Of a DNA stretch of 64,000 nt, positions 527 through 63,188 are shown in pieces; position 1 is the first letter of the stretch; the number at the start of each line of letters is the position of its first letter. Where the stretch lies: NCBI GenBank assembly GCA_964017065.1, contig OZ024786.1:3534369-3598368 (forward strand). Direction: 5' to 3'. A program made the translations under genes and the position numbers. Below the pieces are notes generated by a model. It searched no databases and had not been told where the DNA came from. It saw nothing but the letters and a program-made list of their open reading frames with translations. The stretch is from Haliclona indistincta. Its lineage: Eukaryota > Porifera > Demospongiae > Haplosclerida > Chalinidae.

Positions 527-3500
527 CATTGAGCATTAATGGACCCATCAGATTATGGCGTAATGGTAATTCATCACTCTCATACACTTCTGGACGAGTA
601 CAACTTGTGTACAACAATCAGTGGGGCAACATTTGTGATGATGCTGACTTTGGTTCATCTGAGGCTACAGTAGTGTGTCATCAGCTGGGATATACTGGTG
701 CTAGTTTCCTCAGCAGAGCAAGTACTGACTCGTAAGTGACAGTTTATGATCAATCAATAGTTTGTTGATTTATAACTGAATGAGCATGTGACTGAATGAC
801 GACTTAAGCTGCCTTGTATGCTGGATGCATCGTGTTTGCTGTAAGATAAGAAATTTTGAATGTCAGAAAGAATGCCATGCAGGCTCAAAAATTATGATCG
901 TTGAATGAAAATAGTTTGTTAATTTTAACAAACCTCAAAATTTTATTCTAAACAATAAATAATTATGATATCTTGTACCCAGCCCTTGTTATGTACATAG
1001 TACACATTTTTCTGTGATCCATAAAGTTACTCATGTTCGCCTTCTTGCAGTTATTTTTAAAACTTATAGTTGGTGAAATTTTAACAAAGACTTGACTTAA
1101 CTATATAACATCTATACAGGTTTGGTACTGATACTAGTCCCACAGTAATTGACAATGTGGATTGCAATCTTTCAACGTATCTTGTTATTCTACAATGCTC
1201 TTTCTCCACCATCATTTCTTTATCATGTACTAATGATTTTGATGTATCAGTTTATTGCTGTAAGTTAAGTTTTGTTTACAATTGTTGCACAGATAGCAAA
1301 CATTGACTAGCTAAAAGTCAAACTTCCCAGATTTATCAGAACCCTGACCATGAGTCATGTGTGTGTTTGAAGCATAAGAACAAACCATCTGATCTTCATT
1401 GATGACAGTCTATGACAGATTTGAGATACAAATACCCCGATCACACTGCATGTTGGAACCGAGCCGAACCGAACTGTGCCACCTGTTCAGTTATAGCACA
1501 GTTCAGTTGTGTTGATACTGTCAGAGATTTGTAACCAGGTCGGCCTGGTCCGGTTCTTATGCATAGCTCGAATGTGAATATTAGTGTGTTTCTAGCACTG
1601 TGATTTGATTTGACATGTGTGTTGACCATGAGCAGAGTGTATTTCATAGTCATTTCTCTGTAACACACTCTATCCTCTATGCAGACACTACTAGAATATG
1701 GGAAAATCCTTACAATCTTCAAGTTCGTCTTACTAGAGGGGAAACTGTTAACCAGGGTCTGGTGGAAGTGTTCTGTAACGGACAGTGGGGTACTGTGTGT
1801 GATGATGGGTTTGGTCGAACTGAAGCTGACACTATTTGCAGCCAACTGGGATACCACAGTGCAAATAGATATGATCATCTCTCAATGTGAGTTATATCAC
1901 TATTCTAGAGTCAAAATGATCCTTGATGATGATGAAATGATCTGATGTAGGGATCTATGGTCTGTTAGCAAGTCAATTGTGTTACCATTCCATGCTAGTT
2001 CCATGTTGGTTTACATTGTGGATCAGTAGCAGATTTCATTCATCTCTACATCCTTTTGATTTCGTTAGAAATATTTTTATTTTCTTGTATATACATATAA
2101 TTATTTTTTATTAAAACTTTTTAACTATCATACGTGTTTTCTGCAGATTTGGCAGTAGTTTTATGCCGATAGTCCTGGATGATGTTATCTGCAGCTCTCT
2201 GAGATCATGTATTGGCTATTGTCAACAATGTCAATCATCACACAACTGTCAGCATTCTGAAGATGTCACTATTGAATGCTGTGAGTATTGTTAATAGTAT
2301 GTACTGAATAATCTTTTTCCAAGTATGCGCTAATAACCTCAAATATATTATTAATCCAATGATATGTAGCTACCTTTAAGGCTGGTTTATGTCATGATAC
2401 AATAGCCTGAATCGTCTACACTTTGTCACTGCAACACATATATTGTGTCACATGGCCTGCTAGTTTTATCATAATAATTATTATGTGACAGAAGTGTGAG
2501 TCCAGTAGCATGCGCATGCAAATTGCACTGGAAGGCAGTAATTTTTAAGTGTTTTACAAGTGTTTTAAGTGTTAAATTGACATACTATGATTTTCAATGC
2601 TTTCTCATTTCCCATGCAGATTCTCCTTCACGCTACTCTGGTACAAACATAGGAACTTGTGACGGTGTTTTTGGTATGATAAATATTACATTATTATGCA
2701 GACATTGTATTTTATATTCTATTTTAAATTATGGTTTTCAAGGGTGCCTTTTTGCTTCAATGTTCCATGATTGTAGAACATAGCCTGATGTGAATACATT
2801 TTTTCTACAAAGCATTCAAATTATCAGAGAAATTTCTTAATTCAAAAAATTGTTATCAAGACCAATGAACTTAATAAGGGTGTTCGACCTAGCTGTATTA
2901 ATTAAAGGTATACTATTTAGCCTATTTTTCTTTCTTAGTCTTTTGAAACTTGTGTTTGTTGATACGTTACAGGCCTACCCTGGTCTATACCATAGAGTGA
3001 CTATGCATACAAAAAAATTATTCTGAACTCTCAATTACGTAATTCATTATTTTTCTTTAGAAACTGGGTCATCAACTTCGTCGTCCAACGTTGGAGCTAT
3101 TATTGGAGGGAGTATCGGAGGAATTATCTTATTGATTGCATTCATAGTAATCTTGAGCTGCATTGTTAAGCAACACAAGCGTACATCTACTAGAGTCAAT
3201 ATTTCAACCGCTCGACGACCAGATGTTGGTCTTCCTCTGACCACCACTACATCAGTACCAACACAGCCTCAGCAACCACCTACTGCTTTTAATATAGTGC
3301 CACGACCAGAAGCTGCAGTTGGGGCTACATTTAACAACAACCACAATCAAATAGCAGATACTGCAGCTACATTCACCCACAATCAACCAACTGATCCCAG
3401 CATCACTGCAGCTCCTCCTCCTGCTTATGGTAATGCTGATAACTATGCTACCTATAATGAAGGACAATCAGATCTTCCACCACCATCATACAGTGAAACA

Positions 3501-3596
3501 CGTCCATCTCTTTCTCTACCTCCTTCTGCTCCTCCACTTTATCCTGCACAATCACCAACATTTGTATATCCTCCTCCTTGCCCACCACAAGCATAG
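527..3596 (+). CDS. G1: SRCR-domain membrane receptor, 3' part (last module, TM, PPxY tail)
   Basis: Exons: 527-731 (A), 1120-1259 (B), 1685-1886 (C), 2147-2280 (D), 2620-2673 (E), 3061-3596 (F, stop TAG). They join into an open frame of 422 residues after the first two bases, which complete an upstream codon. A+B form an SRCR domain ([31 protein letters not shown]), C+D a second one ([25 protein letters not shown]), and E is a linker with TCDG. F gives a membrane helix ([11 protein letters not shown] onward) and a Pro-rich tail with PPAY, PPSY and PPLY; the fourth site reads PPPC. The first exon starts in phase 1, and no leader exon is seen in 1-526. The exon is closest to module 3 of G5 (45540-50303), so earlier modules and the leader probably lie left of the window. 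Family: SRCR receptors bind proteins or microbial polymers; the ligand here is unknown. Confidence 0.87.
732..1119. other. G1 intron A-B, nothing recognised
   Basis: GTAAGT donor and TACAG acceptor; AT-rich sequence without a recognised element. The other G1 introns of this size (1260-1684, 2281-2619, 2674-3060) are likewise plain. Confidence 0.6.
1943..2088 (+). repeat. Solo foldback arm of family A in G1 intron C-D
   Basis: This matches the right arm of the family A foldback (compare 12788-12934), from GATGTAGGGATCTATGG to the ATTTTCTTG end. The left arm and the rest of the element are absent. The end lies about 60 nt from the acceptor of exon D. Confidence 0.75.
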
Positions 3597-4249: not shown

Positions 4250-5876
4250 ATGGCGATTAGGTATTGCAACTGTTGGTCAAAACGACTCATCGCTCTCGCC
4301 TTTCTTGCTTTTTTAACCGTAGTACTAGGTAAGCACGTTTACATGAGATGTATACCGTGATATGTTACATGTGAAGCCTTATAGTCATGCATGATCGTAC
4401 TTGCTGTTGTTCAGGTCAGAGCAACGGTCCCATTCGATTGCGGTGGCGCAATGGCGTTCCCTCAGCTACGAACACTTTTGGACGAGTGCAGGTATACTTC
4501 AACAGTCAGTGGGGAAACATCTGTTATGATGCTAACTTTGAAATAACAGAAGCTACTGTGATCTGCCATCAGCTGGGATACACTGGTGCTAGTAGCTACA
4601 GCAGAGCAAGTACTGACTCGTAAGTTTGGGCTGAACTACACACTCTTATATTGGTACTGAACTATACTACATGCCATGGATTCCATTATGTTATCATGTC
4701 ATAGTCTCATAGACCTTTTCCAATTCCGTATACTCGGTATGATATAGTGATTTGGTGATTGGCTTTCTCTATTTTTGTACTTTTTCGCAATAATTATTAC
4801 TTTATATTGGCTTTTCTTTGTTTTCTAGCTTAAGAATACCATCGTATCACTGTGACGGAGTTGCATGTGTCTCTCGTAGCAAAGGCTCTTTGTGCCTATT
4901 ATGTTAGGACCCCATGCATGCCCTGTTTCACTGGTGTCTCTGCCTCCGTTGTGCATTGTGATTGCTAAGTAGCTGACCAATATTCAGCATACATAATTAT
5001 GTTACATCATAACAATCCTTGATTTATGACTTTCTCTTTCTTTAAGATCAGCTTTATAATCATGCATTAATTTCTTGTTGTCTATACTATTGTTATTTCA
5101 GGTATGGAACAGACACTAGTCCCACAGTACTCAGTAGTGTGGATTGTTCTACCTCATCATATCTGGTGATCCTTCAGTGTAGTTATGACTCTACTCCTCC
5201 TTCATCATGTACTGATAGTGATGATGTATCAGTCAATTGCTGTGAGTCATAGCTACATACTATCAACACGTCACACAATAGTATATGCTAGTCAGTTCAT
5301 GATTCAGAATAGAGAGCTTTAGTTATACGTTTATCACTAATGGCTAACACTTGGCAATGCTGACATCAGAATTTATTACGTGATCTGCCATTAACCTCAG
5401 GCCTCACAAACAATGTCACGGTTGCAATGCATGGCTGGCACCTGTTTTCAAATGACAGCAGTATTGTCATTGTGTATCATAGTTATCATCTTCTGATATA
5501 CTACATTACATGATATTTCTTCACAGACTCCACTAGAATATGGAGCAGTCCTTATCTTGGTCAAATTCGTCTTACTGGAGGATCCACTGTCAACCAGGGT
5601 CTGGTGGAGATCTACTGTAGTGGGCAGTGGGGTACTGTACTGTGTGTGATGACTTGTTTGGACAAACAGAAGCTGACACTGTTTGCAGACAACTGGGATA
5701 TGAACGTGCTTATGATTATGACCATCTCTCAATGTGAGGATTGATATGAAAAATAGAACAATAGTCATAGTTTCACAAAGTCGGTTGAAGATGTTTAGCT
5801 AAAGTGTGTTCTACGCACAACTTTCTATAGAAAAATATTTTGTAGTTGTATAAACTTCTTAGCGCCAACTGTAAAT

Positions 5877-6790
5877 TATGCCACGCGGTAGACGTGGCAT
5901 ATTTAGGGTTGGGCGGAAAACAAGATGGCGGCTACACTTAGGATAAACGCAATAATTCACGTATATATCTTGGCTGTTGACGACATCAGGGGTATTTTAA
6001 CTACCTAGGGGTTATCCTAAGAGGTAAGCGCTTACAATGAGTCTACTAATAAAGGCTATAAGGCCAGTTGCTATGGGCATGAAGATGGCGTCTCGCATGA
6101 AGGCATCGTAAGTACGGCACTACCATATCTTCGCCGTACGGGTGTTTCAAGCTAATCTAATGTTCTGAAGCTCTTTGCACGATTTTTGCGATTACAAAGA
6201 GACCTTCAGAAGCAAAAGAAACCAGGTCTAAGGTGGTAAACCAGAGTTCACGTGGTCACCCGTTTGTTCATCTTCTTTCTTATTCTTATTCTTCTTCTTC
6301 ATGCAGAGAGCTATATAGCGCCGTGGGTAGTGAGCTATTCAAGACAAAACCTACACAGAAGCTACACTAGTCGTTGGGAGCAGTGCACCTGACATCTATT
6401 TAAGCCTAAAACACTAGCAGAAGCGAGTATTTCCAGAAAAACAGCGAATTTTGGTCCATAACAGACTCCATTCTATCATTCTGTTTGAACTCCGTTACTA
6501 GGTTACGCCTACTCGCGCACGCCCGTGTATTTAATTATTCTAATACAAGCGCACCTTAGTACAAATTGCTTGCAACGCGCGAGCGCTGCTGCCACTAGCA
6601 GTGTTCACAGCAGACAACGAGCAATTCATCACTGTTACACTGGATTTATCTGTTCAGGCGTAAGAATGCTAGCTAATGTTGCATGGTACGTGTTGCATAC
6701 ATGCAGTGCAGACTGTCGATCGCCAGCTAGCTAGGGCAGTCAGCCGAAATAGTTCAAGAGGCTCTTTACACTATAATTTATTAGCATAAG
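5877..6790. mobile_element. Family B transposon in G2 intron C-D
   Basis: It starts with a hairpin of ATGCCACGCGGTAGACGTGGCAT, then GGGCGGAAAACAAGATGGCGG. It contains a CTT-rich tract near 6270-6302 and a 3' half resembling 8113-8300 of the element at 7708-8557. The homologous G4 intron (32974-33221) lacks it, so insertion followed the G2/G4 duplication. No transposase reading frame. The right boundary is approximate. Confidence 0.65.
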
Positions 6791-6829
6791 TGCCAACTAT
6801 ATAACTCATTAATAAAAAAAGAAAAGAAA

Positions 6830-7123
6830 CAAGTAATAAAAACATTTTAACCAAAATGCAAAAGATTTAGGGTTGGTACATTTATCGAAAAAGTATGGAA
6901 ACAAGATTTTGAAATGAAAAGGATTGTAACAATAATAGCAGTATAATGCTACCTCCCTAAATTAACTGCTTTCGATAGTTGTGGTTAATTTAATAGGGAG
7001 GTAGCATTATACTGCTATTATTGTTACAATCCTTTTCATTTCAAAATCTTGTTTCCATACTTTTTCGATAAATGTACCAACCCTAAATCTTTTGCATTTT
7101 GGTTAAAATGTTTTTATTACTTG
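6830..7123. mobile_element. Foldback (long inverted repeat) element, about 294 bp
   Basis: Two arms of about 130 bp are almost perfect reverse complements (6830-6960 and 6993-7123), separated by about 30 bp. Outer ends are CAAGTAATAAAAAC and GTTTTTATTACTTG. It is absent from the G4 intron, so it is a recent insertion. No coding capacity. Confidence 0.85.
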
Positions 7124-7170
7124 TAAAATTATACTTATGCTAACATTCTTACACACAGTACTGTTGTGCA

Positions 7171-7294
7171 TAGCCTCGTACCCAGGCTCTCTGGCGGAGA
7201 TTTAATTATGCGTGGGTGTTGATCAATCGCTACCCCTGCATTTCAACACCCACGCATAATTAAATCTCCATCAGAGAGCCTGGGTACGAGGCTA
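7171..7294. mobile_element. 124-bp foldback MITE with 9-bp target duplication
   Basis: Arms of about 50 bp start TAGCCTCGTACCCAGG and end CCTGGGTACGAGGCTA. The flanks 7162-7170 and 7295-7303 are both TGTTGTGCA. The paralogous G4 intron has the unoccupied site TGTCGTGCA once (33153-33161). An 8-9 bp duplication would suit hAT- or Mutator-like transposition; the superfamily is inferred. Confidence 0.88.
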
Positions 7295-7609
7295 TGTTGT
7301 GCATTATTTCAGGAACGACAGACTGCATGTTCTGATGCATGTACATTTTGTAGCCAAGGTACTCCCTTTCAGCCGATCTGGTTGGACGATGTTTCATGCT
7401 CAACTGCACGACCTTGCATTGGTGATTGTGTTGGTTATTGTCTAATAACTCACAATTGTGGTCACCATGAAGATATCACCATTACATGCCGTGAGTATGG
7501 ATTCAAATCATAGTCCGTGCCAGTGACTCGGCTGTAAATTTCGTCATAGATTCTCCAAACCGCTATACTGGAACAACAAGATCCACATGCACTACAAGAA
7601 CAGGATCAG

Positions 7610-8557: not shown

Positions 8558-9209
8558 CTTTTCAGTTTTTTATTAAAAATTTTTTACTTTTGTATTATTG
8601 GTGTGAAACTATTCTATTATTAAAGTGGTAAAACTATTCTATTATTATAGTGGTAATAATATTTAGGTGCTTTTAAGTAATAATGTTATTAATTTTTGTT
8701 TAGGACCTGCTTCATCTCCACCTGTTGTGTCATCCAATATTGGAGCTATTATCGGAGGGACTATTGGAGGAATCATCTTATTGGTTGCACTCATAGTAAT
8801 CTTCAGCTGGATGATTCATAAACAAAAGCTTAGTACATCACGAGTTCAAAACACTGTGATCGATTTTTCAACTGCTCAACAAACGGTTGTTGGTCTTACT
8901 ACTACATCAGTACCAACACAGCCTCAGCAACCACCTACTGCTTTTAATTTAGTGCCACGACCAGAAGCTGCAGTTAGGGCTACATTTACACACAACAACA
9001 ATCAACCAGTGGATACTGCAGCTACATTCACCCACAATCAACCAACTGATCCCAGCATCACTGCAGCTCCTCCTCCTGCTTATGGTATTGCTGATAACTA
9101 TGCTACCTATAATGAAGGACAATCAGATCTTCCACCACCATCATACAGTGAAACACGTCCATCAGTTTCTCTACCTGATACTTTAGCCCTGATACCTTCT
9201 GTATCATAA

Positions 9210-10146
9210 AGACCTGGTCACTGACACAGCCATTACAATAATTAACAACAATTCCAACTGTTCCTCTTTTAATGTATTCTCACTACACTTTGTGTAGTCA
9301 CCGACGGCGACAGCTAGGCTATACTGGTGGATCTGCTGTATAATTATTCTCTTTCTCTACCTCCATCTGCTTCACCGCTTTATCCTGCACAATCACCAGC
9401 ATTTGTATATCCTATTGGACAGAACTATGCACTCAACATTCTTAGTTGTCTGTTGCATGTTTTACACTTAATTTATGTAGTCACTAGTTAATGTGTAACG
9501 CTGACTCTTCTCATTCACTCTGTCTGCTTATTTAAAGTTTTGTAACATGTGACCAGTTCAGTGTGTTCAGTTTTCTTCATTGTGTTCTCCTTGTATCGCT
9601 CTTTCAGTTGTTGTCTTGTGTTGTCCTAATAATACATTTAAAAAACCATCATATCCTCCTTCCTACCCTCCACAAGCATACTGTGTCACTATTATGTCAT
9701 ATTTAGACAGCAAAAAAATGATTTATTGTTTGTAAACTTTTTGACGCTTCTTTTTATTCCTTAATTCTCTAATGACACTTCATAGACGTCACAATTGCTA
9801 TTACATCATGCATTATACAGTACAACTTGAATTACCAATATAATAATCTAAGTAATTTAACCGCACGGACATATATTACACTACCTGTCAGTGTATTTAC
9901 TCCTTACAGCTAGCATGCAGTATTATCTATGGCAGAATCCTATACTATTTCATGACACAACGAGGAAGTTCTGTGACGAGGGAATTTATCAAATTTGTTT
10001 CTAAAGTTTTATAATTATTAGGTTTTATAATTGCGGAACTGTCTCCTCCCAATACTCTTAGCTTGCTGGCTAGCCTCGCGCAAGTCTCGCTGCTAGTCTG
10101 GCCGCTGCCCCTCCCCGCTACGAGTCGCTAGTTTGTCAAGGTCAAA
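9210..10146. other. Spacer G2-G3 with orphaned tail-coding remnants
   Basis: Fragments of the long-type tail lie out of frame beyond the G2 stop: about 9350-9413 ([18 protein letters not shown]) and about 9652-9680 (PPSYPPQA). Interrupting DNA at 9176-9349 and 9414-9651 separates them; ATATCC flanks the second interruption. From about 9690 on the sequence resembles other 3' flanks. GTCTCCTCCCA at 10041 is shared with 51631 upstream of G6. Confidence 0.65.
10041..10051 (+). promoter_or_regulatory. Conserved upstream block of type II genes (G3)
   Basis: GTCTCCTCCCA lies 106 bp before the G3 start and recurs at 51631 before G6 (73 bp before ATG), both followed by CTAGC-rich sequence. It may be a promoter element; it is missing before G5, where an insertion replaced it. 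Confidence 0.3.
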
Positions 10147-13100
10147 ATGAGGACCACGTCTCTCAACTGCTGGTCAAGACGACTCACTGCCACACTCGCC
10201 TTCCTTGCTATTTTAAAGGGCGTAGCACAAGGTACATTGTAACTAGAATACTGCTATGCGTGCCCGTCTAATCGTTGCATGTTATGATCATACTTGCTGT
10301 TATTCAGGTCAGAGCAATGGTCCCATTCGATTGTGGCGCAATGGTGTTCCCTCAGCTACGCACACTTTTGGACGAGTGCAGGTATACTTCAACAGTCAGT
10401 GGGGAAACATCTGTGATGATGCTAGCTTTGGACTAACAGAAGCTACTGTGATCTGTCATCAGCTGGAATACACTGGCGCTAGTAGCTACAGCAGAGCAAG
10501 GAGTGACTCGTAAGTTTGGACAGAACATGTAAAAGAGGTCAATGCATCTTGAGTACTTCTGTATCTATACACACTGCTCTGTATACCTTTTCCTAACCTT
10601 AGTCTGTAGGACCTACATACTACATAATAATGTGATATCAAACTATACTGTAGTACTATAACATACCATGGATTCCATTGCATGCTACCATGACGTCAAA
10701 TGACGTCACATCACCAGATGAATGTACTTTATTAGGTTCATTATGCTGTGTTGGCACATGAATGTATTTAATTGTTATTGTTACAAGGTACAAAGTGTCA
10801 GACAGATAACTGTACTATGATAACAAATAGATGATCTGGCTGCTTGTAGGAACAATAACACTACACTACATATGTAAACTTAACTTCCCATTTGGTTCAG
10901 TTGTTACCTATGTAGCTTGTGTTCATCTACAGAATAGTGAATGGAAGGTATCATTGATCAATACATACTGTGCAAACACATTGTATCACCCAAGAAAATG
11001 AAATATGTGCATATTATAAAAGTGTGCACATTGTTCAATACATCACTGTACATCAACAGTTTGATGTTTAAACAATGACAATAACACAAACATTGTGTGT
11101 ATGGGCGTCCTGTTGATAGAGCCTTGGGTACCACAGATTCAGCGGTTCTAATCCCACTAGGGTAGGAAAGTAAAAGTCATATCTGTAAAACGGGTATATG
11201 GCTTGTACTGGGGGAGCAAAAGTTCATTGGCTGCATTGATCATGTAAAATACGAGGTCCATGTGGGACATGTTCACTGGAATGTATTTTTCCATCCTTAC
11301 TGCTGGGACCCATCACCACCTGCACATTCATGGTGTGAAACTTCTCTTCATGAGGGTAGCGGGTAAACTTTGGTTTTTTGCTTTGTGTGTGTCGGCTAAA
11401 AGTAAATGTGCTAACTGACCTTCACAGCTGGGTCCCCATCACCACTTCTTCCAGTAGGGTAATTTTTTTTAGGAGAGTGGCAAATAAGTTTTTCTTTTTC
11501 TTTTGAGTATGCATGTGTGTAATTTACTAAGTTTTCTGATTGCAACTCAAATGCATCTGCTGATAGATTTGTCTCAATCAGGAAGTGAAAAGTCTGGTTC
11601 TACAGCTTGAGGTTCACCAGCCACCAACAATGCCTAATGAGCATGACATGTGTAATGTAGTATTGTAATTCTGTACTACTATTACAAGGATGCCTACACT
11701 AGCTACATGTACCTACAATAGGTATTATAATATTATTAGGGAGGCACGGTAGTGACTCCCTATGTAGGGATGAACGAGAAAAAAAGATGGCGGCTACATA
11801 CAATGTATTAGCGTTCAAACGCTGATATTTCGCCTGGTGAGAATTGTATACGTCCAAAGACACTTAGATGCATTGCCCCATCTTACAGTAGCAAGGAGAT
11901 TGCTCGAAATTGTTACTAAAGTGACGAACCTGGAAACGGTGAAAATCGACCTTCGTTTTCTTTCTTTCTTTCTTCAACTCGCCTAGCGCCTTTACGCGAG
12001 CAGTGCCGAGACCAAAACACCCACGAACAGTCGTGAAATTCTCCTGGCATGTGCCTTTTGAACTTAGTTTTTAGCGAAATGACGATATACATTTGACGAG
12101 CTCACGATCACGAACAGTTGTCAGCTAAGTGTTTGACGCCATTATTGTGATTACGTAATACGTACGTGACCAAACACACTTGTAGAGTATCGCCATATGA
12201 AGAGCGCATATTGGCGTCTGGAGTCTTCGAAGAACAACTCACAGAGTAAGCTCGTGTAGTATCACCGTTCTGCTGCTTGCCAGATAGTATCACAGTCATG
12301 CAGAAAACTCTAAACCAGAGTGGGCGGGGCTCGTATGCTGTGCATCCAGGCTTCAGCATGCATGAATGCATGAGCTAGTTTCAGTATTTAGGAGCTACAA
12401 GTTAAAAAGCAATTATCAAGAAAAGCAAACCAAACCAATGATGGAAACAAAAAAGAGATACATTATCTTGCCGAATTCGAACTGCACCAAAAATTTGAAA
12501 CTCACAGTAAAAGAAAAAAGGACACAAACAAGAAAATAAAAAGATTTCTAACGAAATCAAAAGGATGTAGGGATAAATAAATCTGCCACTGGTCCACAAT
12601 GTAAACCAACAAGGAGCAAGCATGGAATGGTAACACGATTGACTTGCTAACAGACCATAGATCCCTACATCAGTGGCTGACTACAGCAGTTCTGCTAGTT
12701 GCTATTGACTGACACCTGACATGCATTGAATTGAATTTAGCTTGTGACAAAATAATTATAGTATAGTCAAAATGTTATGTACAGCCACTGATGTAGGGAT
12801 CTATGGTCTGTTAGCAAGTCAATCGTGTTACCATTCCATGCTTGCTCCTTGTTGGTTTACATTGTGGACCAGTGGCAGATTTATTTATCCCTACATCCTT
12901 TTGATTTCGTTAGAAATCTTTTTATTTTCTTGTATGGTTTGTAGTGTACTGGTCTATTGTGGTTACCATGAACTCCATCATAGACTGTATTGTTCATCAT
13001 GTAAGATTTGTGCTGTGTTGTGTTGTTGTAGGTATGGAACAGACACTAGTCCCACAGTACTCAGCAGTGTAGACTGCTCCACATCAGACTATCTGGTGAT

Positions 13101-36929: not shown

Positions 36930-37159
36930 TAAAGACCTGCTTGGTCACTGACACAGCCATTACAATAAGTAACTCTATTTTTCACAACAGCTCCTACTGT
37001 TCCTCTCTTAATGTATTCTCGCTACAATTTTTACAGTCACCCACGGTGACACAGCTATAGGCTATATTGTTGGATCTGCTGGATATTGAAAATGCATCTC
37101 TTTCTCTACCTCCATCTGCTCCACCACTTCATCCTGCACAATCACCAGCACTATTGGTA
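36930..37159. other. 3' flank of G4 with tail remnant
   Basis: Sequence after the stop matches the same region of G2 (9210-9349). Then 37092-37150 codes, out of frame, for the [18 protein letters not shown] part of the long tail. The remnant is broken by copy A5 of family A, and its last piece (CCTTCCTACCCACCACAAGC) lies beyond it at about 38418. Confidence 0.7.
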
Positions 37160-51703: not shown

Positions 51704-54700
51704 ATGGGGATTACGTCTCTCAACTGCTGGTCAAGACGACTCACCACACTCGCTTTTCTTGCTATTTTAACCATAGTACAAGGTACATTGTAACTAGAAC
51801 ACTGCTAGGCGCCCGTCTAGCCTCAATTGTTGCATGTTATGATCATACTTGCTGTTATTCAGGTCAGAGCAATGGTCCCATTCGATTGTGGCGCGATGGG
51901 TATACCTCAGCTACGCACACTTTTGGACGAGTGCAGGTATACTTCAACGGCCAGTGGGGAAACATCTGTGATGATGCTAGCTTTGGACTAACAGAAGCTA
52001 CTGTGATCTGTCATCAGCTGGAATACACTGGTGCTAGTAGCTACAGTAGAGCAAGTACTGACTCGTAAGTTTTGACAGAACATGTAAAGAGGCCTAGGTC
52101 CCATGCATCTTGAGTACTTCTCCATGTATAGGGTCTCCACATAAAAAATCAACTTCTACAAAACCACCTTTTCATCGACTTAGTATGTACACCAACTTAT
52201 AAAACCTCCTGGTGCATATTTCACAATCCAAAACTTCTTCGATCCTGCAAAAAACAGCTTTAAATGCTGACCGCAATCAGTTATTAACCCTCGGCGCATG
52301 CGCGAGCTAGGGTTACAGTACTTGGTTTGTCATTCGTTCGTTCATTTGTTCTGTCCAATGAGCTGCAGAGACCATCACTCACTTCTGAAACTCGGTAAAG
52401 GTATGAACAGACTTAGCACGACAATGGCTTCCAATGTGACTTGTGGATATTGCTAAAGTGCTTTCGTTTTTGAGTTATTGCTGGCTGACCTTGACAGCCA
52501 TCTTGGACGTCTATGAGAACAGAATAGCTCATAATAGACTACCTAGGTGCTTGTACATTCCTGCAAGACAGCTCTGAGGGTGCATAGACATCTATGGCTA
52601 CCTTCTAAGTGTTCATGGTCATGCCCACTTGCACGTGACACACCTTGTGGTCAGCACTTTGCTGTCTTCTGGTTAGCAGTGCTGTTTCAATAACAAGCAG
52701 GTTGGCAAAGTATAACTAAGGAGCTTACTCTACAATGTGCATGACACACCGAGGGTTTTGTGAAATCTGTTCATTAACTAGTCATTCGATCTTCTTATTA
52801 GAGAACACCTCTTGCACGACAAGCAAAGTCCTGTAAGGTCTCGGTTAGCAAACTAGAAGAGGTCGGGTTAGTTGATGGGGTCGCTTCCAGCCAGATGGTC
52901 AGAAGTGGCAGTTTATGTTTATATTTATGCAACATGTACAACTACTAACCAACTTTATAAAACCATAGTGAGGAAGCCGCTTCCTCTTTAGCGAAGAAGC
53001 TTACATAGGGTTACTGCATAGATACTGCAAGTGTCGGCGCTGGCTTCAAACTCCCGGTTTCGACACAAACGGTATCTCTTCATAACACCTAGACCTTTAC
53101 CAAAGATCCAGTAAATTGCATAATTCAGCTATGTTGTTATCCTGCATAGAATCGACTTCAACTAGTTGCCTAGTTCTATATCACTGAATTGTTTTTTAAA
53201 CCAATAACCATTTTGTATGTCGAATTGAAAGTCGATTTTATGCAAGAATGGCCAGCAGCCTTACTGAACTTTGCTTGTCGTGCAAGAGATGGTCTCTAAT
53301 AAGAAGATTGAATGATTAAGTAATATTTAGACCACACTAAGTGGTGCATTACGCGATATAAAGCATGAGGGTGGGGTCAATAACGGTTGAGAACGCGTTG
53401 ATAATGCACGAGCGGTAGGCGAGTGCATTATCACGCGTTCGAGACCGTTATTGAGCACGCCCGAGTGCTTTATATCACGTAATGCACTGCCTAGTGTGGT
53501 CTAAACGTTTTAGACCATACCAGGTGACTTTGACCGAGTGCTTGCTATTTTGTTTACTTTGTTTACCTAAAAGTGTGCATTAACAACTTAATGCACACTT
53601 AAGTATGCATTAAGCTATTTAATGCATACTTTTTGAGCAATCTGATTGGTTGAAAGTCACGTGGTATGGTCTAAGCTTAACTGAAAGCGGTCAGAGTTTA
53701 AAGCTGCTTTTTGCCAGATCGAAGAAGTTTAGGATTGCGAAATTTGAACCAGGAGGTTTTATATTAAGTTGGTGTACATACTATGTTGCCGAAAAGCTGA
53801 TTTTATAGAAGTTTATTTTAATGTGGAAGAACCGCTCTGTCCATTGCCTAACCTTAGTCTTTCCTTCCTATTGTATGTATAATACAATGTGTGGTATTCA
53901 ACTATATTGTAGTTTCTATTACTCAATATAAATTTTTAAGATTCGTGTATGATTTGTGCTGTGTATTGTTTTTTTAGGTATGGAACAGACACTAGTCCCA
54001 CAGTACTCAGTAGTGTGGATTGTTCTACCTCATCATATCTGGTGATCCTTCAGTGCAGTTATGACTCCACTCCTCCTTCATCATGTACTGATAGTGATGA
54101 TGTATCAGTCATTTGCTGTGAGTCACTGATCATGATGCATGCACAATTACACATCTGGTAGGTTAGACAGCTCATAGATATTATATACAAAGTAACCGGG
54201 ATTGACAACGAGCAAAAAATTGTCCATTATTGCATGCCATCCTGTTGCTTGGGAAGTCTGCACGAAGCCCCGCCCACCAGTATGTTGCCCATTTCTTCTA
54301 CCATTTCTTTGTTGTTTATCAATGTATAAACCATTGTAGATCATCATAGAGAATAGAATACAACAATGAAAACAACGAAGAACAAAAACAATGAGAATCT
54401 TAATATACAGTCCAGGAGCCCATTGAGACGACATGCACAAGGGAGCATGCAACTCTGTATACGGCGAAATCCAAACATGGCATCCTATTTTTAGTAATAT
54501 TCAACGAAATCCCATCCTATTTTTAGTAATATTCCTTATTATGGTCATGCACATGGAACTTTATTACACAGTGGAGGATTGCAGTCTACAGTAAAGCAAA
54601 TGCCTTCGTTAGACTGACAACGAGACAGCAGCAAATTAAAGTTCTAGCTATAGCAGACAAACTGTCGCATTGTGAGCGGCAGCGTAAAGTCAATCTACGA

Positions 54701-57700
54701 CTACTTCGGTAATGAAAAGATGTCGGCGGTAGAAAAATAATACAAATTGCTTTCCACAGTGCGTCTTCGCTTGGGGAACTCTTCGAGAGCGCCTAGCCTT
54801 GCCGTCACATGAACGTTTCATGTTTACAGTACCTACAGTACGTTTGATCATGATGTGCACGCCCAGTTTCTCAGGGGTTAATCTTAAGTTTATTCCCTAA
54901 AAGGGAACTAATATTTTTAACTAGTCAGCCATGTTTGGATTTCGCCGTATACAGTAACATGTACTGAGTTACATGCTCCCTCGCCGGCTTAGCCGCCTCG
55001 ATATGCTCCTGATATTCGTCTCTCCTGCTGATGGAGAATCTTCCAGTGACCCATTCTATCACTATGAAATGAGTATAATATTCATATTTAGAAATCGACT
55101 TTAAAAGCTTGCACAAAGTTCTTAACTATCCAATTCCATTTCTACATGCTTATCCTACAATTTAAACGCTTTATAGTGCATACAAGCGATGACAGAAAGG
55201 TGTTATGCGCCCACAAATACACATGTTACACAATTATTAATCAAGTGACATAGAAGCAGCTTTGCTACCTAAATGCACTTCAGTTCCATGAGCAAATGAA
55301 CCAGTAATGAACAGAAGCTACAACTTTGAGCTTGACTACCGTGGAGCTAGACGCCCACAAAGTCTCTGAAGAACGACGAAGAATGCAAACTTCGTGTATC
55401 ACAACACCGGGACTCAGAATGAGCACCAATCACTATAAAGTAGCCTGCTAGTGACTGTAACAACACACTAGTATCCACTTGAGCCCATCGTTCACTACAG
55501 AGCATTCTTTCGAAACAGCAACATCTTCTTGACCTCTCGCCTACCGGGCACTCCCACCACAACACTGATGACACGCAGGCTAATGTACAGTGGCAATTGG
55601 CGCACTTTACCCAATGCCAATCCCGGTTACATAGTATATTAGGGTTGAACATAGTATATTAAGGGTGCACGCAACTAATTAATATTCACGGCGCTGCGCG
55701 TTGCTATGGTCAGTGTTTCTGCAAAACTAAAGCAGCAGACAGAGCGATATTAGCAGTATAGCTAGTGTGTCTTGATAGCTACTCGTATCATGAAATTTAA
55801 CGGGCTTGCTTGCTTGCAAGAACGCGGTCCATGATTGACCTGTATATTCATAAAACTCACCAGTGAAGACTTGAATGAGCTCAATATTCCAGAAATGCAA
55901 GTTTCAACAAAGCTGCAATCTAGTGACAGAGCGATTTTTTCGCTGGCGCGCCTAGAAAGCACCGTTGCTCTTCGAGCAGCATGGATTTTCTCGTTTTTCT
56001 CGGCAGTGTGGCGTTTATTTAGAAAAATCGTTCTGTTACGGTATAGCCCACGTGTTGGCGATCCCATAGAGCTAAAAGACGTCCAGATCCAGCGTGCGAT
56101 GGCGAAGTTTTATGCCAAAATGCATGTCGGCTAGGGCAGCGCCATTGGAATGCTAGCTGAGTATACAGTTGCTATTGGCTGTGGTTTGTCGTGTAAACAG
56201 TTGCTATGTCAGCAACCACACTATAATTATATTCAGTGTTCAAGCGCTGATATTTCGTCTGGTGATGATTATATACGTCAAAAGACACCTAAATCTGCTC
56301 TCTGGCGTTGCCCCATCTTAAAGTAGCAAGGAAATCGCTCGAAATTGTTACTAAAGTGACGAACCTGGAAACGGTGAAAATCGAGTTTCGTCATCTTCGT
56401 TTTCTTCTTTCTTTCTTCTTCCTTTCTTCAGCGCGCCTAGCGCCTTTATATACGCGAGCAATGCCAAGACCAAATCACCCACGAACAGTCGTGACATTCT
56501 CCTGGCAGGTGCCTTTTGAACTTTGTTTTTAGCAAAATGCCGATATAAATTCCGTGATTTCTCGATCGTGATCCATCGCCAGCTAAGTGTTAGACGCCAT
56601 TATTATTATTGCGCAATACGCACATGACCAAGCAGTGGTTAGTATAGCGCACGTGACCAAGCACTAGCTTGAGTATCTCCACGCCTTATAGATCACATAT
56701 TTGTCTGGAGTCTTCGAAGAACGGTAAGCTCGTATAGGATCGCGCTTACCAGATAAGTACAACCGTCAACTAACAAGTGAAGGCGGGGCTCATATCCACT
56801 GCATGCATGCATGCGTAGGCGAGCTGATGTGTACAGCATAACAAGTGTTTTGGCTAAAAGTTTAAAATTCTTAATAATAAAGAAAAGCCATCAACAACAG
56901 GAAAATTAAACCAATGGTGCATGAAACAAAGACAGCTCAGTACGTGCATAATATTGAACTGCACTTCACTGAAAAAGAAAAAAGGACACTAACAAGAAAT
57001 TTAAAAGATTTCTATCGAAATCAAAAGGATGTAGGGTTGTGAAGTCTACCACTGGTCCACAATGTAAACTAACAAGGAAATGGTAACCAAATTGTCTTCT
57101 ACATCAGTGGCTGTACATAATTGATCAATATTTTGTCACAAGCTGAATGCACGTCAGGTGTCAGTCAACAGCAACTAGCTGAACTAGCTATAGCCAACCA
57201 CAGCAGCCACTGATGTAGGGATCTATGGTCTGTTAGCAAGTCAATCGTGTTACCATTCCATCCTTGTTCCTTGTTAGTTTACATGGTGGACCAGTGGTAG
57301 ACTTCACAACCCTACATCGTTTTTGCACAGCATTAGCTATACACTATAGAAATTTACTTGAGGTGAAGGACAGGGTGTTAATTTGTTGAACAGCAATGTC
57401 GACAGGTTTTTGTAAAGACGTTCATTTTGATTTTTAATGAAATAGTGTACTCAATAAACTTTCATACAAGATGTAGACTATAGTGATCAACACCGACCAA
57501 ATGTGTATTGCTCTAGTCTAAGCAAGAGCACTTTGTTCTGAGTCACTCGATGCCAACATAACAAATGAGAAAACAGCCTTTGTACCAGTTTTTTGGGTCA
57601 AATAATGCATTAACATGTTTTACTTTTCAGACTCTACTAGAATATGGAACAGTCCTTATCTTGGTCAAATTCGTCTTACTGGAGGATCCACTGTCAACCA

Positions 57701-60700
57701 GGGTCTGGTAGAGATCTACTGTAATGGACAGTGGGGTACTGTGTGTGATGATGGATTTGGTCAAACAGAAGCTGACACTGTTTGCAGACAACTGGGATAT
57801 GAACGTGCTAGTGATTATGACCATCTCTCAATGTGAGGATTGATTTGAAAATTTGTCACAAGCTGAATGCACGTTAGGTGTCAGTCAACAGCAATTAGCT
57901 GAACTAGCTATAGCCAACCACAGCAGCCACTGATGTAGGGATCTATGGTCTGTTAGCAAGTCATTCGTGTTACCATTCCATGCTTGTTCCTTGTTAGTTT
58001 ACATTGTGGACCAGTGGTAGATTTCACAACCCTACATCCTTTTGATTTCGATAGAAATCTTTTTAATTTTATTTCTAATAACATTTGAAGATGCTTTTAT
58101 CTTTGTGAAACTTTATGTGCATGTATTTCCCTGGCCTATACTCAATGTATGTTTTATACTAATCATGTGATATTAAAGAATCGCCATGCTATAAATACAC
58201 TTCCTCTGGTTAAAAAAGTATTACAGCACATGATTAGCACTTTTCTCTAGTACTTGCATGTTACACAAGACTTTTAAGCCATTATTCAGTTCTGCGCACG
58301 ATTGACTTATGCACGTTCCAGATTTAAGCCACTTTATAAATTGTGCAGTTCAGAATCTGCTCCGTGCATTCCATTTCTTAATCCCTGTTCCATTCCGCTT
58401 GGTTTCGTTTTTAACGCTCACCTGTGTGTATCGGAAAAATAGCCCCTGATCTTATAGCTGCAATGTGCTACACAAGTGCATGTGCTGAATTAGTTCTAGC
58501 TGGGCAAATTTGAGTATAAGACTGTTTCTTTTGTAGTCGTGGTAGTTCTTCTCAGCCGATCTGGTTGGACGAGGTTTCATGCTCTTCATCTCATACTTGT
58601 ATTGGTGACTGCGTTAGTCATTGTCCAGTATCACATGATTGTTCTCACAGTGAAGATATCACCATTACATGCTGTAAGTATACTTCAAAACTATTCACAA
58701 GAATTATTGGTTATTCACAACTTTCTCACAGATACTCTTGTTCGCAATACTGGGACAACAAGCTCCACATGCCCTATGAAAACAGAAGCACCACCAGGTA
58801 TACAATATTGCAAGAGCAAGTTTACATGCGAGTCTGAAGTAAGCAGCTCTCGGGTGACTGGTAGTTTACCGTCACGTAGCTATATGTTCTGCAACTTGTG
58901 CAATATCGAAACTGAGTTGAACAAATTGGTGGTTGCTAAATTGCGTGCCAGTTTCGAAACTGCGTGCGTTATTTTGAAACTGCACAACGAGAATTTCTGC
59001 TCAAATTAGAAATGGCAGTCTACATTATTGCAACTATGGTTGCAAGCAGCAAACATACCTTCACACCTACATGTACTAAATTGGCGTGCAAAGATTATGG
59101 ATGCCAGCATCGACACACACTTCGACCAGTATTGTCGAGCGAAGTTCTCAGGCTCTACTAGTGACGCTGATGGTGACAATGGTGAAGCAAATGCCACACC
59201 GAGTACTAGCAAAGCAATACTGTGCTAGTGTAAAGTTGGCCAACGCCATGTAGAAAGCGGATTTATAATGTCTTTGTTAGCCATACAATCTCTAATTCAC
59301 CACCTAGCAAACTACTAGCGTTTGAACGCTATTACATTGTATTATAGCTGTCATCTAGTTTTCAGCTCATCTCTACATATGAACGCACTACCGTGTGTCG
59401 CTACATACATGTATAGTAATATAAATTTGAACCATCTTGTATCATCTGTTTTTGTGTAAAGTACCTACAGATATTGATAGTGGGCCAATCAGACTGCTGC
59501 GTAATGGTGATACTTCACCCTCATACACATCTGGACGAGTGCAGCTAGTGTACAACAGACTATGGGGAAACATTAATGACTGCAGCAATGAATTTGGACT
59601 ACCAGAAGCTACTGTGATCTGTCACCAGCTGGGATACACTGGTGCTAGTACATATACTAGAGCTTCACAAGATTCGTATGTTCACTGTATACGTGATAAC
59701 ACTTTAGACACAACCATGAGCATGAGCATGAGTTTCTTTGATGAATAAAGCACACGTGCATTTGACGACGCTCTAGAATTCTTATCATGCACCATCTTTA
59801 AAAATGTCTTCTTACAACAATTATTGCATGATCAAACTTTATACCCTTTAGATTTGGGCTGGACAATAGTCCTACAGTTATCACTAGTGTGGACTGTAGC
59901 AATTCAAACTATCTGGTGATACTTCAGTGCAGATTTTCTTCATTCCTTTCCTCATCGTGTTCTGATGATGCCGATGATGTTGGAGTTGATTGCTGTGAGT
60001 AATTTCACCAAACATAAAGCATTCTTTAAGTTTGGTTTACAATGTGTCCCAAATGTGCTTTGTTAATAATGCTAAAGTTTCTATTGTTTGAGTTGCATTG
60101 TGATATCGTTTGCAGTTATAACAGTTACTGTGTCATAATATGCCTTCATCCCTCAGTGCATGGTTTGGAGAAACCACCGAGGGATAGCCACCTATATGCC
60201 GTTGCGCACAGACAGTGTCCATTGTGGAACCAGCGTTGCAATCCACATACGTATTCAAAAACCTCACCCTGTCTGACAAAAGTGTGTGTTCTGCATTAAC
60301 ATGTTTTACTTTTCAGACTCTACTAGAATATGGAACAGTCCTTATCTTGGTCAAATTCGTCTTACTGGAGGGACTACTGTCAACCAGGGTCTGGTAGAGA
60401 TCTACTGTAGTGGGCAGTGGGGTACTGTGTGTGATGATGGATTTGGTCAAACAGAAGCTGACACTGTTTGCAGACAACTGGGATATGACCGTGCTAATGA
60501 TTATGACCATCTCTCAATGTGAGGATTGAATTGAAGAATAGACAGGCACAAAATTAGTAGTAATTACATGTATTAATCATGCACAGAACTGAGCAATGTG
60601 CTAAATGTCTTGTGCAACATGCAAGTACTAAAGAAAAGCGTACGTCTCTTATCTTTTGAAGATGCTTGACATTGCTAGTATCTTTGTGCAGCTTTACGTG

Positions 60701-63188
60701 CATACATGTCCCTAGCTATACTTCTGGTAATCTATGTTTTTATACTGAATGCAAATTTATGCAACTAGCTATAGCCTTCTGCTTGGACCAAGAGTCCTAT
60801 CTGGACATATTTATGGTCATGCAGCTCTTATGAGCTGCTAGGCTTAGCGGCCAGCAACATGTAAAGGCTCTCTGCCTTCCACAATTTGCTTACAGCACTG
60901 AGTTAGTACTGTTTCTATAGTACTTGCATGTTACACTGCTCATGTATTTCTGCACATGAGTTATGTGCATACTTTATATTCTTTCAGGAAGAATATCATT
61001 CAATGTGCTACACAAAGTGCATGTGCTGAATGAACAGAATTTTCATTAAACCCTCGGCGTGTCATGCACATTGTAGTGTTAGGTCCTGGTTTGGACCAGC
61101 AATAGTGCCAACATACTAGCTATGTAGTGCTAACGCAAAGTGCTAACCACAAGGTGTGTCTCAAGGGTGTGACCATGAACACGTGAGTAGGTAGCCATTG
61201 CTGCAGTGTAGGCTCTTTACCCTCAGAGCTGTCATGCAGTTTAGATGGAATCTATAAGTACCTAGGTAGACTGCTATGGCGCTTCTGTTCTCATAGAGGT
61301 CCAAGATGTTGTCAAGGTGAGCCAGCCATAACTCGACAACAAAATCATAATTTTTTATTAGCAAAATCCACGAGTCACTTTGTAAGCCATTGTCGTGCTT
61401 ATAATGCTCATAACCTTACCGACATGTAGAAGTTATCACCGATCAATGGACAGAACGAACGAATGAATGAACAGGTTTCACAAACCCTCGGCGTGTCATG
61501 CACATTGTAGAGTTAGCTCCTAAGTTATGGTTTGCAGAAGGAGCATTGCAACTGAAGCCAATCTGCTTGCTATTGAAATTACACTGCTAACCGAAGACAA
61601 CAAAGTGCTGACCACAAGGTGTGTCACATGGGTGTGACCATGAACTCTGAGTAGGTAGCCATTGATCTAGGCTTTGATAGGCTTTTTCTTCAGATGTATA
61701 CCACCATACGAACTATCCTGCAGTTTAGATGGAATCTACAAAATTAATACCGAGGTAGTCAACTATGGGCGCTTTTGAAGTCATAGAGGTCCAAGATGGC
61801 CCTCAAGGTGAGCCAGCCATAACTCATATCGAGAAAGAAAGCACTTTAGCAAAATCCATCTGTCACATTGCAAGCCATTGTTGTGCTTATCATGCTCATA
61901 ACCTTACCAGCATGTAGAAGTGATTGCTGATCTCTGCAGCTCGATGGACAGAATGAATGAACGAATGACAGAGCAAGTACCTTAACCTCGCGCATGCGCC
62001 GAGGATTAATGACAGAACAAGAACCATAACTCTTGCGCATGCACCGAGGGTTAATTGTTCCATCTGTGCAAATTTGAGTGTAATACTGGTTGTTTTGTAG
62101 TCGAGGTACTTCCTCTCAGCCGATCTGGTTGGATGAGGTTTCATGCTCTTCAGCTCGTCCTTGTATTGGTGACTGCGTTAGTCAGTGTTCAGTATCACAT
62201 GATTGTACTCACAGTGAAGATATCACCATTACATGCTGTAAGTATACTTCAAAACTATATATTCAAAAATTGGTTATTCACATAACTTTGAATTTTCTCA
62301 CACAGATTCTCCCGCTCGCTATACTGCGACAACAAGCTCCACATGCACTATGAGAACAGCAGCACCACTATCAGGTATGCTATACTGCAAATGCAAATTT
62401 ATACAAGTGTGAAGCAAGCAAGTATAGAGTGACTCGTAGTTACCCCCACACACCATTGAGTACAATACACATACTCTGCGATCATGCACTTGCACGTGCA
62501 TGCATACTCATGATATATAATTAATTTCATGGATGGTTATTTTTCAAATTTTCAATTCAAGGTTAAAATTTTGCTTCCTGCAGAAAATTTTCGCTATGCG
62601 TTTAGTTCATCCTTACAATGAATTCAACGATGCTATTCTGCATGGTGACTTATGCATTTATTTTCATTATTAGTCGGAGCTGTTGTTGGAGGGACTATTG
62701 CAGCCATATTCTTGGTGACTGTGTTTATATTCATATTGATTGCCTGCATCGTTAAGAAACCCAAAGCCGTATTAAAATTTCTAAGAACGGGTCATTTAGA
62801 AGCTGCCCATCCTCCACAAACACCTGGTGCTACCACCTCACACAGAGCAGAATATCCTCGGCAGCAGCCTTCAGAATTTGCCTTTACACTACCACAACGA
62901 CCTGAAGAAGCAGCAGCAGCAGCAGCAGATTTCCCAGTCTCTCTTGCAAGAGCGGTAACTACAGCAGAGTCTACAGCCTCTCCTTTGACTGATACCAGCA
63001 TCACTGCAGCCCCTCCTCCTGCTTATGGTCTAGCTGATAATTATGCTACCTATAATAAAGAACAATCAGATCTTCCACCACCATCATACAGTGAAACACT
63101 TTCATCACTTTCTCTACCTACATCTCCAGCTATTGTTTCTTTACAATCATCAAGTGCAGATCCTCCTCCTTACTCACCTCAGACATAA
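51704..63188 (+). CDS. G6: four-SRCR membrane receptor with recombinant module 2 and divergent tail
   Basis: Exons: 51704-51782 (leader MGITSLNCWSRRL..), 51863-52064, 53978-54117, 57631-57832, 58537-58673, 58732-58797 (module 1), 59471-59675, 59852-59994, 60317-60518, 62101-62237, 62306-62374 (module 2), 62674-63188 (F). Sum 2097 nt, 698 residues plus stop. Signal peptide about 1-27, module 1 to about 275, module 2 to about 527, TM about 528-555 (VGAVVGGTIAAIFLVT..). Exons A and B of module 2 are of the G4/G5 module 2 type (NINDC), but C, D and E are of the module 1 type, so the module is a chimera. Exon F is the most divergent of the array: no extracellular Ser-rich start, a different helix and juxtamembrane part, an Ala-rich run, and a tail with PPAY, PPSY and [21 protein letters not shown] and [10 protein letters not shown] are still conserved. 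Confidence 0.87.
52136..53827. mobile_element. 1.7-kb element with about 140-bp TIRs, nested repeats inside
   Basis: TCCACATAAAAAATCAACTTC at the left and the inverse at the right (TAGAAGTTTATTTTAATGTGGA) begin arms that pair over about 140 bp, including AACCTCCTGGT and CTTCTTCGATC. Inside are a segment inverted relative to 61483-61700 (about 52590-52770) and a hairpin at about 53326-53512 (GCATTACGCGATATAAAGCA). No intact transposase frame. Confidence 0.75.
54183..55638. mobile_element. 1.46-kb TIR element with nested foldback
   Basis: TAACCGGGATTG at the left and CAATCCCGGTTA at the right, within 21-bp arms, are the ends. Nested within are GTATACGGCGAAATCC (54457) and GGATTTCGCCGTATAC (ending 54952). 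It lies in G6 intron B-C. Confidence 0.65.
55655..56160. repeat. Partial TTAAGGGTGCA-type element
   Basis: TTAAGGGTGCACGCAACTAA and TTAATATTCACGGCGCTGCG resemble the left end of the element at 27145. The right end was not found. The reading frames inside match no family I know. Confidence 0.4.
56231..57318 (+). mobile_element. Family A composite element, copy A7 (head lost)
   Basis: It starts at TTCAGTGTTCAAGCGCTGAT without the head hairpin. Body and foldback follow (arms at about 57000-57112 and 57203-57318, the left one with deletions). Confidence 0.75.
57852..58071 (+). repeat. Family A loop plus right arm, copy A8
   Basis: This repeats 57133-57318 closely (GTCACAAGCTGAATGCACG to the CTTTTTAATTTTATT end) and starts only 20 bp after the donor of exon C. 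The left arm is absent, so it is a partial insertion or a local duplication of A7. Confidence 0.75.
61046..62056. repeat. Two tandem diverged repeats of about 0.45 kb in G6 intron C-D
   Basis: AACCCTCGGCGTGTCATGCACATTGTAG begins both 61048 and 61485. Both units share AAGTGCTAACCACAAGGTGTGTC-like, GTAGCCATTG and CATAGAGGTCCAAGATG parts. CGCATGC.CCGAGG words close the block near 62036-62054. A related inverted segment lies inside 52136-53827. Confidence 0.7.

What the first reader, a model, noticed from the sequence alone, without database searches (positions are those of the whole stretch)
527..63188. Array of SRCR receptors that grows by whole five-exon modules
All modules have the same intron phases (1 in, then 2, 1, 2, 1 between exons, and 1 out after E). 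Leader exon, module and tail exon therefore join in frame in any number. Visible module counts are at least 1 (G1), 1 (G2), 2 (G3), 2 (G4), 3 (G5) and 2 (G6), so SRCR number ranges from 2 to 6 among neighbours. Exon shuffling by symmetrical exons is known in animals; a neighbouring array that varies SRCR dosage this way may be a diversified recognition locus.
Basis: partly seen in the sequence, partly recalled or inferred. Interest (0 to 1): 0.8.

Follow-up and report, generated by a model that had tools for sequence, protein, structure and literature searches.

The report
Sponge SRCR receptor genes, mosaic modules
This is a row of sponge immune-type surface receptor genes built from repeated two-domain cassettes; the cassettes are real, but the row seems to have grown mainly by copying whole genes and reshuffling parts, a known way for such receptor families to diversify.

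Summary
The window carries 67 exons of six SRCR receptor genes (G1 runs in from the left), with consensus splice sites in phases 1-2-1-2-1-1. SRCR counts are 4, 2, 4, 4, 6, 4. G3-G6 are open; G2 is frameshifted; G1 has a damaged exon just outside the window. The array is larger than seen: 23 modules in 11 leader-headed units over about 182 kb. The interpretation needs changing. Modules fall into three position classes in fixed order (alpha, beta, gamma). For exons A and B the nearest relative lies in another gene in 22 of 22 rows each, which points to whole-gene tandem duplication with module loss. Six of 23 modules are chimeras with switches in three different introns, so units smaller than five exons are exchanged; some C and D exons are closest to a neighbour in the same gene. 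The alternating AB-CD module, variable module number and tandem arrays are known from Amphimedon queenslandica (PMC10855680). Diversified recognition is plausible but untested: one genome, no RNA. Most novel lead: three upstream units lack a tail, yet their exons read open and in frame into the next gene, giving 18 SRCRs.

The parts
236..307 (+). G1, exon E of its first (alpha) module; the rest of that module and the leader lie left of the window
527..2673 (+). G1 gamma module: A 527-731, B 1120-1259, C 1685-1886, D 2147-2280, E 2620-2673
3061..3596 (+). G1 transmembrane and cytoplasmic tail exon with three PPxY motifs
4250..4328 (+). G2 leader (signal peptide) exon
4415..7609 (+). G2 alpha module: A 4415-4619, B 5102-5241, C 5527-5733, D 7354-7490, E 7550-7609
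5630..5646 (+). stretch holding a five-base tandem duplication in G2 exon C; shifts the frame
8704..9209 (+). G2 tail exon, shortened C-terminus as in G4
10147..10231 (+). G3 leader exon
10308..18050 (+). G3 first module (alpha): A 10308-10509, B 13032-13171, C 15123-15324, D 17780-17913, E 18000-18050
21132..29891 (+). G3 second module, chimera alpha ABCD + gamma E: A 21132-21333, B 23993-24132, C 26200-26401, D 29300-29436, E 29838-29891
29505..29508 (+). alpha-to-gamma junction in the D-E intron of the G3 second module
30303..30859 (+). G3 tail exon
31518..31596 (+). G4 leader exon
31694..33477 (+). G4 alpha module: A 31694-31898, B 32378-32517, C 32772-32973, D 33222-33358, E 33418-33477
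33605..35687 (+). G4 beta module: A 33605-33809, B 33995-34137, C 34870-35071, D 35124-35266, E 35598-35687
36508..36929 (+). G4 tail exon (short C-terminus)
39731..39809 (+). G5 leader exon
39886..42675 (+). G5 alpha module: A 39886-40087, B 41019-41161, C 41653-41854, D 42417-42553, E 42610-42675
43197..45130 (+). G5 beta module: A 43197-43407, B 43624-43766, C 44352-44553, D 44609-44751, E 45074-45130
45540..50303 (+). G5 gamma module: A 45540-45744, B 46314-46450, C 47212-47413, D 49162-49295, E 50250-50303
50605..51089 (+). G5 tail exon
51704..51782 (+). G6 leader exon
51863..58797 (+). G6 alpha module: A 51863-52064, B 53978-54117, C 57631-57832, D 58537-58673, E 58732-58797
59471..62374 (+). 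G6 second module, chimera beta AB + alpha CDE: A 59471-59675, B 59852-59994, C 60317-60518, D 62101-62237, E 62306-62374
60287..60292 (+). beta-to-alpha junction in the B-C intron of the G6 second module
62674..63188 (+). G6 tail exon, diverged but keeps three PPxY motifs

Best explanation
A sponge tandem array of genes for type I membrane receptors: signal peptide, one to three cassettes of two SRCR domains plus a short linker, one transmembrane helix and a PPxY-rich tail. An older gene gained modules until it had three (alpha-beta-gamma). That gene was then copied in tandem, and copies lost modules or swapped parts by recombination between paralogues, or between modules of one gene, within introns; because the borders that matter are phase 1 or pair exons of matching phase, the products stay in frame. 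Inferred function: divalent-cation-dependent binding of microbial or matrix ligands, mainly by the second (CD) SRCR of a cassette, with PPxY motifs recruiting WW-domain proteins such as NEDD4-type ubiquitin ligases for uptake or signalling. Shown here: gene structure in the sequence, classes, chimeras, conservation of motifs. Inferred: splicing, order of events, ligand binding, tail partners, any immune role.
For: 67 exons with matching splice sites and phases. Three classes in fixed order across 11 units; nearest A and B exon lies in another gene in 22 of 22 rows each. AB tree: beta one clade, 100/99. CD tree contradicts it: beta as one clade rejected p 7.8e-6, gamma p 9e-4. Intron junctions located in both chimeric window modules. 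Pfam SRCR: 4 stretches in G3, 6 in G5, the two of four open genes that I scanned. Of the SALSA cation-site places D1019/D1020, D1058 with D, E or N after it, and E1086 (residues from PMC7043408), 11 of 20 CD domains keep all and 0 of 20 AB domains do (counted). PPxY: 2-4 in each of 8 tails. The same alternating AB-CD module in the nine homologues scanned.
Against: No transcripts: splicing and expression are inferred. For AB, one gamma clade is not the best tree but is not rejected (p 0.112). I had seen the exon identities before choosing the groups for the AU test. The order 'gain of beta and gamma, then losses' is parsimony; transfer of modules between neighbours would give the same order. 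Two modules of a second cluster nest within alpha in the AB tree (99/96), so the classes may be older than this array. dN/dS is 0.51-0.75 for most parts and 1.17 for beta AB on few sites: neither proof of function nor of diversifying selection. The cation-site reading went by fixed offsets from cysteines, not by structure. Tail partners are recalled knowledge, not tested.
Confidence: 0.74

Rival explanations
1. One reading: genes lengthen and shorten by duplicating or deleting whole five-exon modules within a gene.
For: Module number varies 1-3; module borders are phase 1. In Amphimedon, modules 1-3 of one protein (P0001) are close kin, so in-gene amplification does happen in this family. Some C and D exons are nearest to a neighbour in the same gene.
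Against: A and B exons are nearest to another gene in 22 of 22 rows each, so no whole module has all its exons nearest within its own gene. Six of 23 modules are chimeric inside the module.
Confidence: 0.2
2. Gene conversion between paralogues, without change of copy number, explains the chimeras and the sameness of module classes.
For: Some exons are nearly identical between distant genes, such as G6b D and G5a D at 99%, X4g B and G1g B at 99%.
Against: In the exon-class table each chimera switches once and keeps one class to the module end; I did not scan for short converted tracts. Module number differs, which conversion alone cannot do.
Confidence: 0.3
3. Assembly artefact or uncollapsed haplotypes.
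For: One assembly only; a 200-base N run lies in the flank at -33787.
Against: No N in the window; most paralogous exons differ by several percent and many introns align only in part.
Confidence: 0.04

Closest known systems
Amphimedon queenslandica tandem SRCR cluster on NW_003546273.1 and related DMBT1-like proteins (PMC10855680)
   Same: Six-gene cluster with 2, 2, 2, 2, 4 and 6 SRCRs; two-SRCR genes with seven exons; duplication units of one or two SRCRs. Eight Amphimedon proteins scanned alternate AB-type and CD-type SRCRs as here; PPxY motifs in 3 of the 11 homologues read (P0004, P0006, P0111), several of the others being incomplete at the C-terminus.
   Different: The two best matches are 47 and 49% identical, and the 20 array modules tested group apart from them (96/95). 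The paper gives three exons per SRCR for most genes, here two, plus a linker exon per pair. I did not have its cluster sequence, so orthology is not shown.
Bovine WC1 genes (PMC2681482)
   Same: Multigene SRCR family in arrays, with 6 or 11 SRCRs, a block of five repeated, each gene with transmembrane and tail exons (passages).
   Different: Each WC1 SRCR is one exon and belongs to group B; here each SRCR is two exons and the cassette holds two domains.
Human DMBT1 copy-number variation (PMC4851238)
   Same: SRCR dosage varies by gain and loss of blocks of one or four SRCRs (passages).
   Different: Variation is between alleles of one gene and was measured in people; here it is between neighbouring genes of one genome.

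Membership tests
SRCR superfamily | SRCR domain above the curated Pfam score | tested here: met
   PF00530 268.7 and 370 bits against cut-off 26.1; 4 and 6 stretches in G3 and G5, the two genes scanned
SRCR group A | six conserved cysteines per domain | tested here: inconclusive
   AB domains have 6 Cys in 17 of 17 counted and fit; CD domains have 9 in 13 of 14 and 10 in one and do not
SRCR group B | eight conserved cysteines, one exon per domain (the exon rule is recalled) | tested here: not met
   6 or 9-10 Cys; two exons per domain
SRCR group C of PMC10855680 | seven conserved cysteines | tested here: inconclusive
   CD domains have 9-10, not 7; the paper's motif figure was not available to match positions
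Sponge AB-CD tandem SRCR receptors (Amphimedon type) | alternation of AB-type and CD-type SRCRs | tested here: met
   all nine homologues scanned alternate over their AB-CD part; they were picked from eleven read because they looked alike, and P0111 has three other SRCRs in front
Sponge AB-CD tandem SRCR receptors (Amphimedon type) | exon phases as in the window | not tested
   no Amphimedon gene sequence was held; a second cluster of the same genome shows like splice borders
WC1-like array | one SRCR per exon | tested here: not met
DMBT1-type copy-number variable gene | allelic variation in SRCR number | not testable with these tools
   one genome only

The most novel reading that the evidence does not exclude
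Gene borders in this array are fluid. A leader exon has no acceptor site, and every module begins and ends in phase 1, so if an upstream gene loses its tail, transcription running on would skip the next leader and join both genes in frame. No tail exon was found for upstream units X1, X2 and X3 (X1 keeps a remnant of about 45 bases), yet their exons are open: X1 leader, nine modules and the X4 tail make one 47-exon, 7,329-base frame with no inner stop, 18 SRCRs, while the leaders of X2, X3 and X4 are still present. The locus could thus work as nested receptors from several promoters sharing one tail.
Probability: 0.25. Interest if true: 0.65.

Novelty: new member of a known kind. Interest (0 to 1): 0.4.

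Why it matters
Sponges carry very large SRCR sets, and the papers I saw describe their growth mostly by gene and domain counts. This array gives exon-level evidence: a fixed alpha-beta-gamma order, module loss, chimeras with mapped intron junctions, and a split within the cassette (many CD domains keep the cation site, no AB domain keeps it whole). That makes the question of how invertebrate receptor repertoires turn over directly testable with long reads from a few individuals.

Tried and rejected
Growth by neighbouring whole-module duplication within each gene: disfavoured for recent events. G3 as a fusion proved by intergenic sequence between its modules: the matching stretch is a dispersed repeat found all over the genome, so I make no such claim; only the alpha-type acceptor and the missing leader before its second module hint at it. 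The window as Amphimedon queenslandica itself: not supported, best matches 47-49% (120 of 3147 hits listed); the species is not identified. Tail exons for X2 and X3: none found at E 0.01 between the units. A first try to cut Amphimedon modules with a pattern found none and was replaced by profile search. A search for papers holding two of SRCR, intron phase and exon shuffling listed 20 of 74, with PMC10855680 the only title on sponge SRCR genes; other paper searches. Seen of papers: PMC10855680 abstract, results, discussion and figure legends; passages of PMC7043408, PMC2681482, PMC4851238, PMC8242945, PMC13372038, PMC4772301; listings only for the rest.

Rows left out: G1a and G2a (damaged exon C) and X1a (its A and B were fetched later) from the trees and from dN/dS and cysteine counts; chimeras too from dN/dS and cysteine counts except that beta AB used all five beta rows; the G6 tail from the tail dN/dS. 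P0056 and P0090 were read but not scanned for the module, as they looked like ordinary SRCR repeats.

Full report
What is there. The window is position 3,534,369-3,598,368 of contig C4 in an unnamed 144-Mb genome. The two best matches to the G3 protein are Amphimedon queenslandica proteins at 47 and 49% identity, so the host is most likely another sponge. Six genes in tandem, all on the + strand, each code for a signal peptide, cassettes of two SRCR domains, and a transmembrane tail. I rebuilt the exons from protein matches and splice sites. The window holds 67 exons; in the final models 62 of 62 acceptors are AG and 61 of 61 donors GT. The sites were sought in the expected phase, so this is not an independent test, but the raw flanks show them at constant places. 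Each cassette is A+B (first SRCR), C+D (second SRCR) and E (a linker of about 17-30 residues).

Which genes are intact. G3, G4, G5 and G6 are open from start to stop, with 4, 4, 6 and 4 SRCRs. G2 has a five-base tandem duplication in exon C, which shifts the frame. G1 has its first module mostly outside the window, and exon C of that module has lost its 5' end; a fragment of a dispersed repeat lies just upstream of the break. Leaders share the same start context, AGGTCAAA or the same word one base on, before ATG in the ten units compared, and an eleventh leader was found later with it.

How big the array is. Flanking sequence and a genome search with exon A (best 150 of 852 candidates scored) give 23 A exons between C4:3,415,738 and the G6 tail, in 11 leader-headed units: X1 to X5, then G1 to G6. 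In 70 kb to the right only low-complexity tail-like matches appeared. The tail exon is found in this array, in a second cluster at C4:2.197-2.216 Mb at 45-50% identity, and weakly on C6 and C8. Exons A and C have many further relatives on C4, C6, C7 and C8. A gene of the second cluster has a single module followed by E and tail.

How the modules are related. Exon by exon there are three classes with fixed positions: alpha first, beta in the middle, gamma last. Units read: X1 alpha-beta-gamma, X2 alpha, X3 alpha-beta-gamma, X4, X5 and G1 alpha-gamma, G2 alpha, G3 alpha plus a chimera, G4 alpha-beta, G5 alpha-beta-gamma, G6 alpha-beta. For exon A the nearest row is in another gene in 22 of 22 cases and in the same class in 21; for B in another gene in 22 of 22, same class in 19. 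For C it is in another gene in 18 of 23 and in the same gene in 5 (X3b, X3g, G3a, G6a, G6b); for D 19 of 23 and 4 (X1b, X3b, X3g, G6a); for E 20 of 21 and 1. So the first SRCR of the cassettes tells of whole-gene copying with loss of modules, on top of an older phase in which one gene gained its three modules; the second SRCR also tells of exchange or copying inside genes, chiefly in the chimeras.

Chimeras. Six of 23 modules mix classes: the G6 second module and the beta modules of X1 and X3 are beta in A and B and alpha in C and D (E too in G6 and X3; X1b E was not in the table); the gamma modules of X1 and X3 are gamma in A and alpha afterwards; the G3 second module is alpha in A-D and gamma in E (A and B of X1's first module by protein match). 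In the window that is 2 of 11 modules. The introns show the switch: in G6 the B-C intron matches beta introns up to base 293 and alpha introns from base 298; in G3 the D-E intron matches alpha to base 69 and gamma from base 72. Trees agree: beta is one clade for AB (100/99), but for CD one beta clade is rejected (p 7.8e-6) and so is one gamma clade (p 9e-4). For AB one gamma clade was not rejected (p 0.112). I chose the groups after seeing the identities. So the exchangeable unit can be one SRCR domain or less, which fits the phases: AB, CD and E are each 1-1.

Older history. In the nine homologues scanned, an AB-type SRCR is followed by a CD-type one over and over; eight are Amphimedon proteins and one is an unnamed protein from a metagenome source. 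They were picked from eleven read because they looked alike. The Amphimedon proteins carry one to four modules, and in one of them modules 1-3 are close kin, so growth by module copying did occur there. The 20 array modules tested form one group apart from these (96/95). When three modules of the second cluster were added, two fell within alpha (99/96) in the AB tree; the classes may thus be older than the array. PMC10855680 already describes a six-gene Amphimedon cluster with 2 to 6 SRCRs and copying of one- and two-SRCR units. Two of the homologues, with 6 and 4 SRCRs, sit on contigs of the same length (475,734 bases); that they are the paper's two larger genes is my inference.

Function. 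AB domains have 6 cysteines in 17 of 17 counted; CD domains have 9 in 13 of 14 and 10 in one. In human SALSA/DMBT1, ligand binding needs cations; D1019, D1020, D1058, D1059, N1081 and E1086 hold those of sites 2 and 3 (passages of PMC7043408). I read the matching places by fixed offsets from the cysteines. Of 20 CD domains, 15 have DD at 1019/1020, 17 have D at 1058 (all followed by D, E or N), 15 have E at 1086, and 11 have all three; the two pure beta CD domains lack the 1058/1059 acids. Of 20 AB domains, 10 have DD at 1019/1020, 3 (gamma) have D at 1058, none has E at 1086 (9 have D), and none has all three. All 8 tails carry two to four PPxY motifs. PPxY as a ligand of WW domains such as those of NEDD4 ligases is recalled knowledge. 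Pooled dN/dS between copies is 0.51 and 0.53 (alpha AB, CD), 0.75 and 0.56 (gamma), 1.17 and 0.72 (beta; few sites, one pair for CD) and 0.71 (tail): mild constraint at most, no proof of diversifying selection. Related work reports individual-specific receptor expression in Halichondria panicea (passages of PMC8242945), SRCR genes responding to bacteria in a sponge study with Amphimedon genes (passages of PMC13372038) and SRCR expansion in three sponges (passages of PMC4772301); none of the passages is about this locus.

The boldest lead. For X1, X2 and X3 no tail exon was found (a remnant of about 45 bases for X1), but all their exons read open. Read through into X4, with each inner leader skipped because it has no acceptor, they give 47 exons, 7,329 bases, no inner stop, nine modules, 18 SRCRs. 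Splice positions were chosen to keep phase, and E ends to keep the frame open, so the open inside of the other exons is the real evidence. One donor in X4's second module is weak and lies near an assembly gap. This may be a merged gene, a set of secreted receptors, or recent decay; RNA would tell.

Limits. One genome, no transcripts, no individuals, no structure model. Gene borders and splicing are inferred. The species is not identified.

Noticed in passing
window 19280-20535, 47512-48757, 11735-12933, 56230-57323 (+); 15403-16652, 37164-38415 (-): Copies of a dispersed element of about 1.25 kb, 75-88% alike, in introns and between genes of the array. Its last 388 bases match both strands; searched genome-wide, 40 places were scored out of 2308 candidates, all matching.
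   Followed up: partly
left flank, about -4422 to -4208 in window coordinates (L015): A fragment of that element lies just upstream of the truncated exon C of G1's first module, so its insertion may have damaged the gene.
   Followed up: partly
C4:2205588-2207754 (L033): In the second cluster the two halves of an exon A lie about 2 kb apart, as if split by an insert.
   Followed up: no
window 9348-9413 and 37097-37156: G2 and G4 tails stop early; a coding remnant of the longer tail end lies about 140 and 170 bases downstream, a shared derived change.
   Followed up: partly
G000 C1:11857738-11901915 and C2:14634244-14662821: Other SRCR exon clusters with repeated matches of identical score, possibly recent copies or duplicated assembly stretches.
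   Followed up: no
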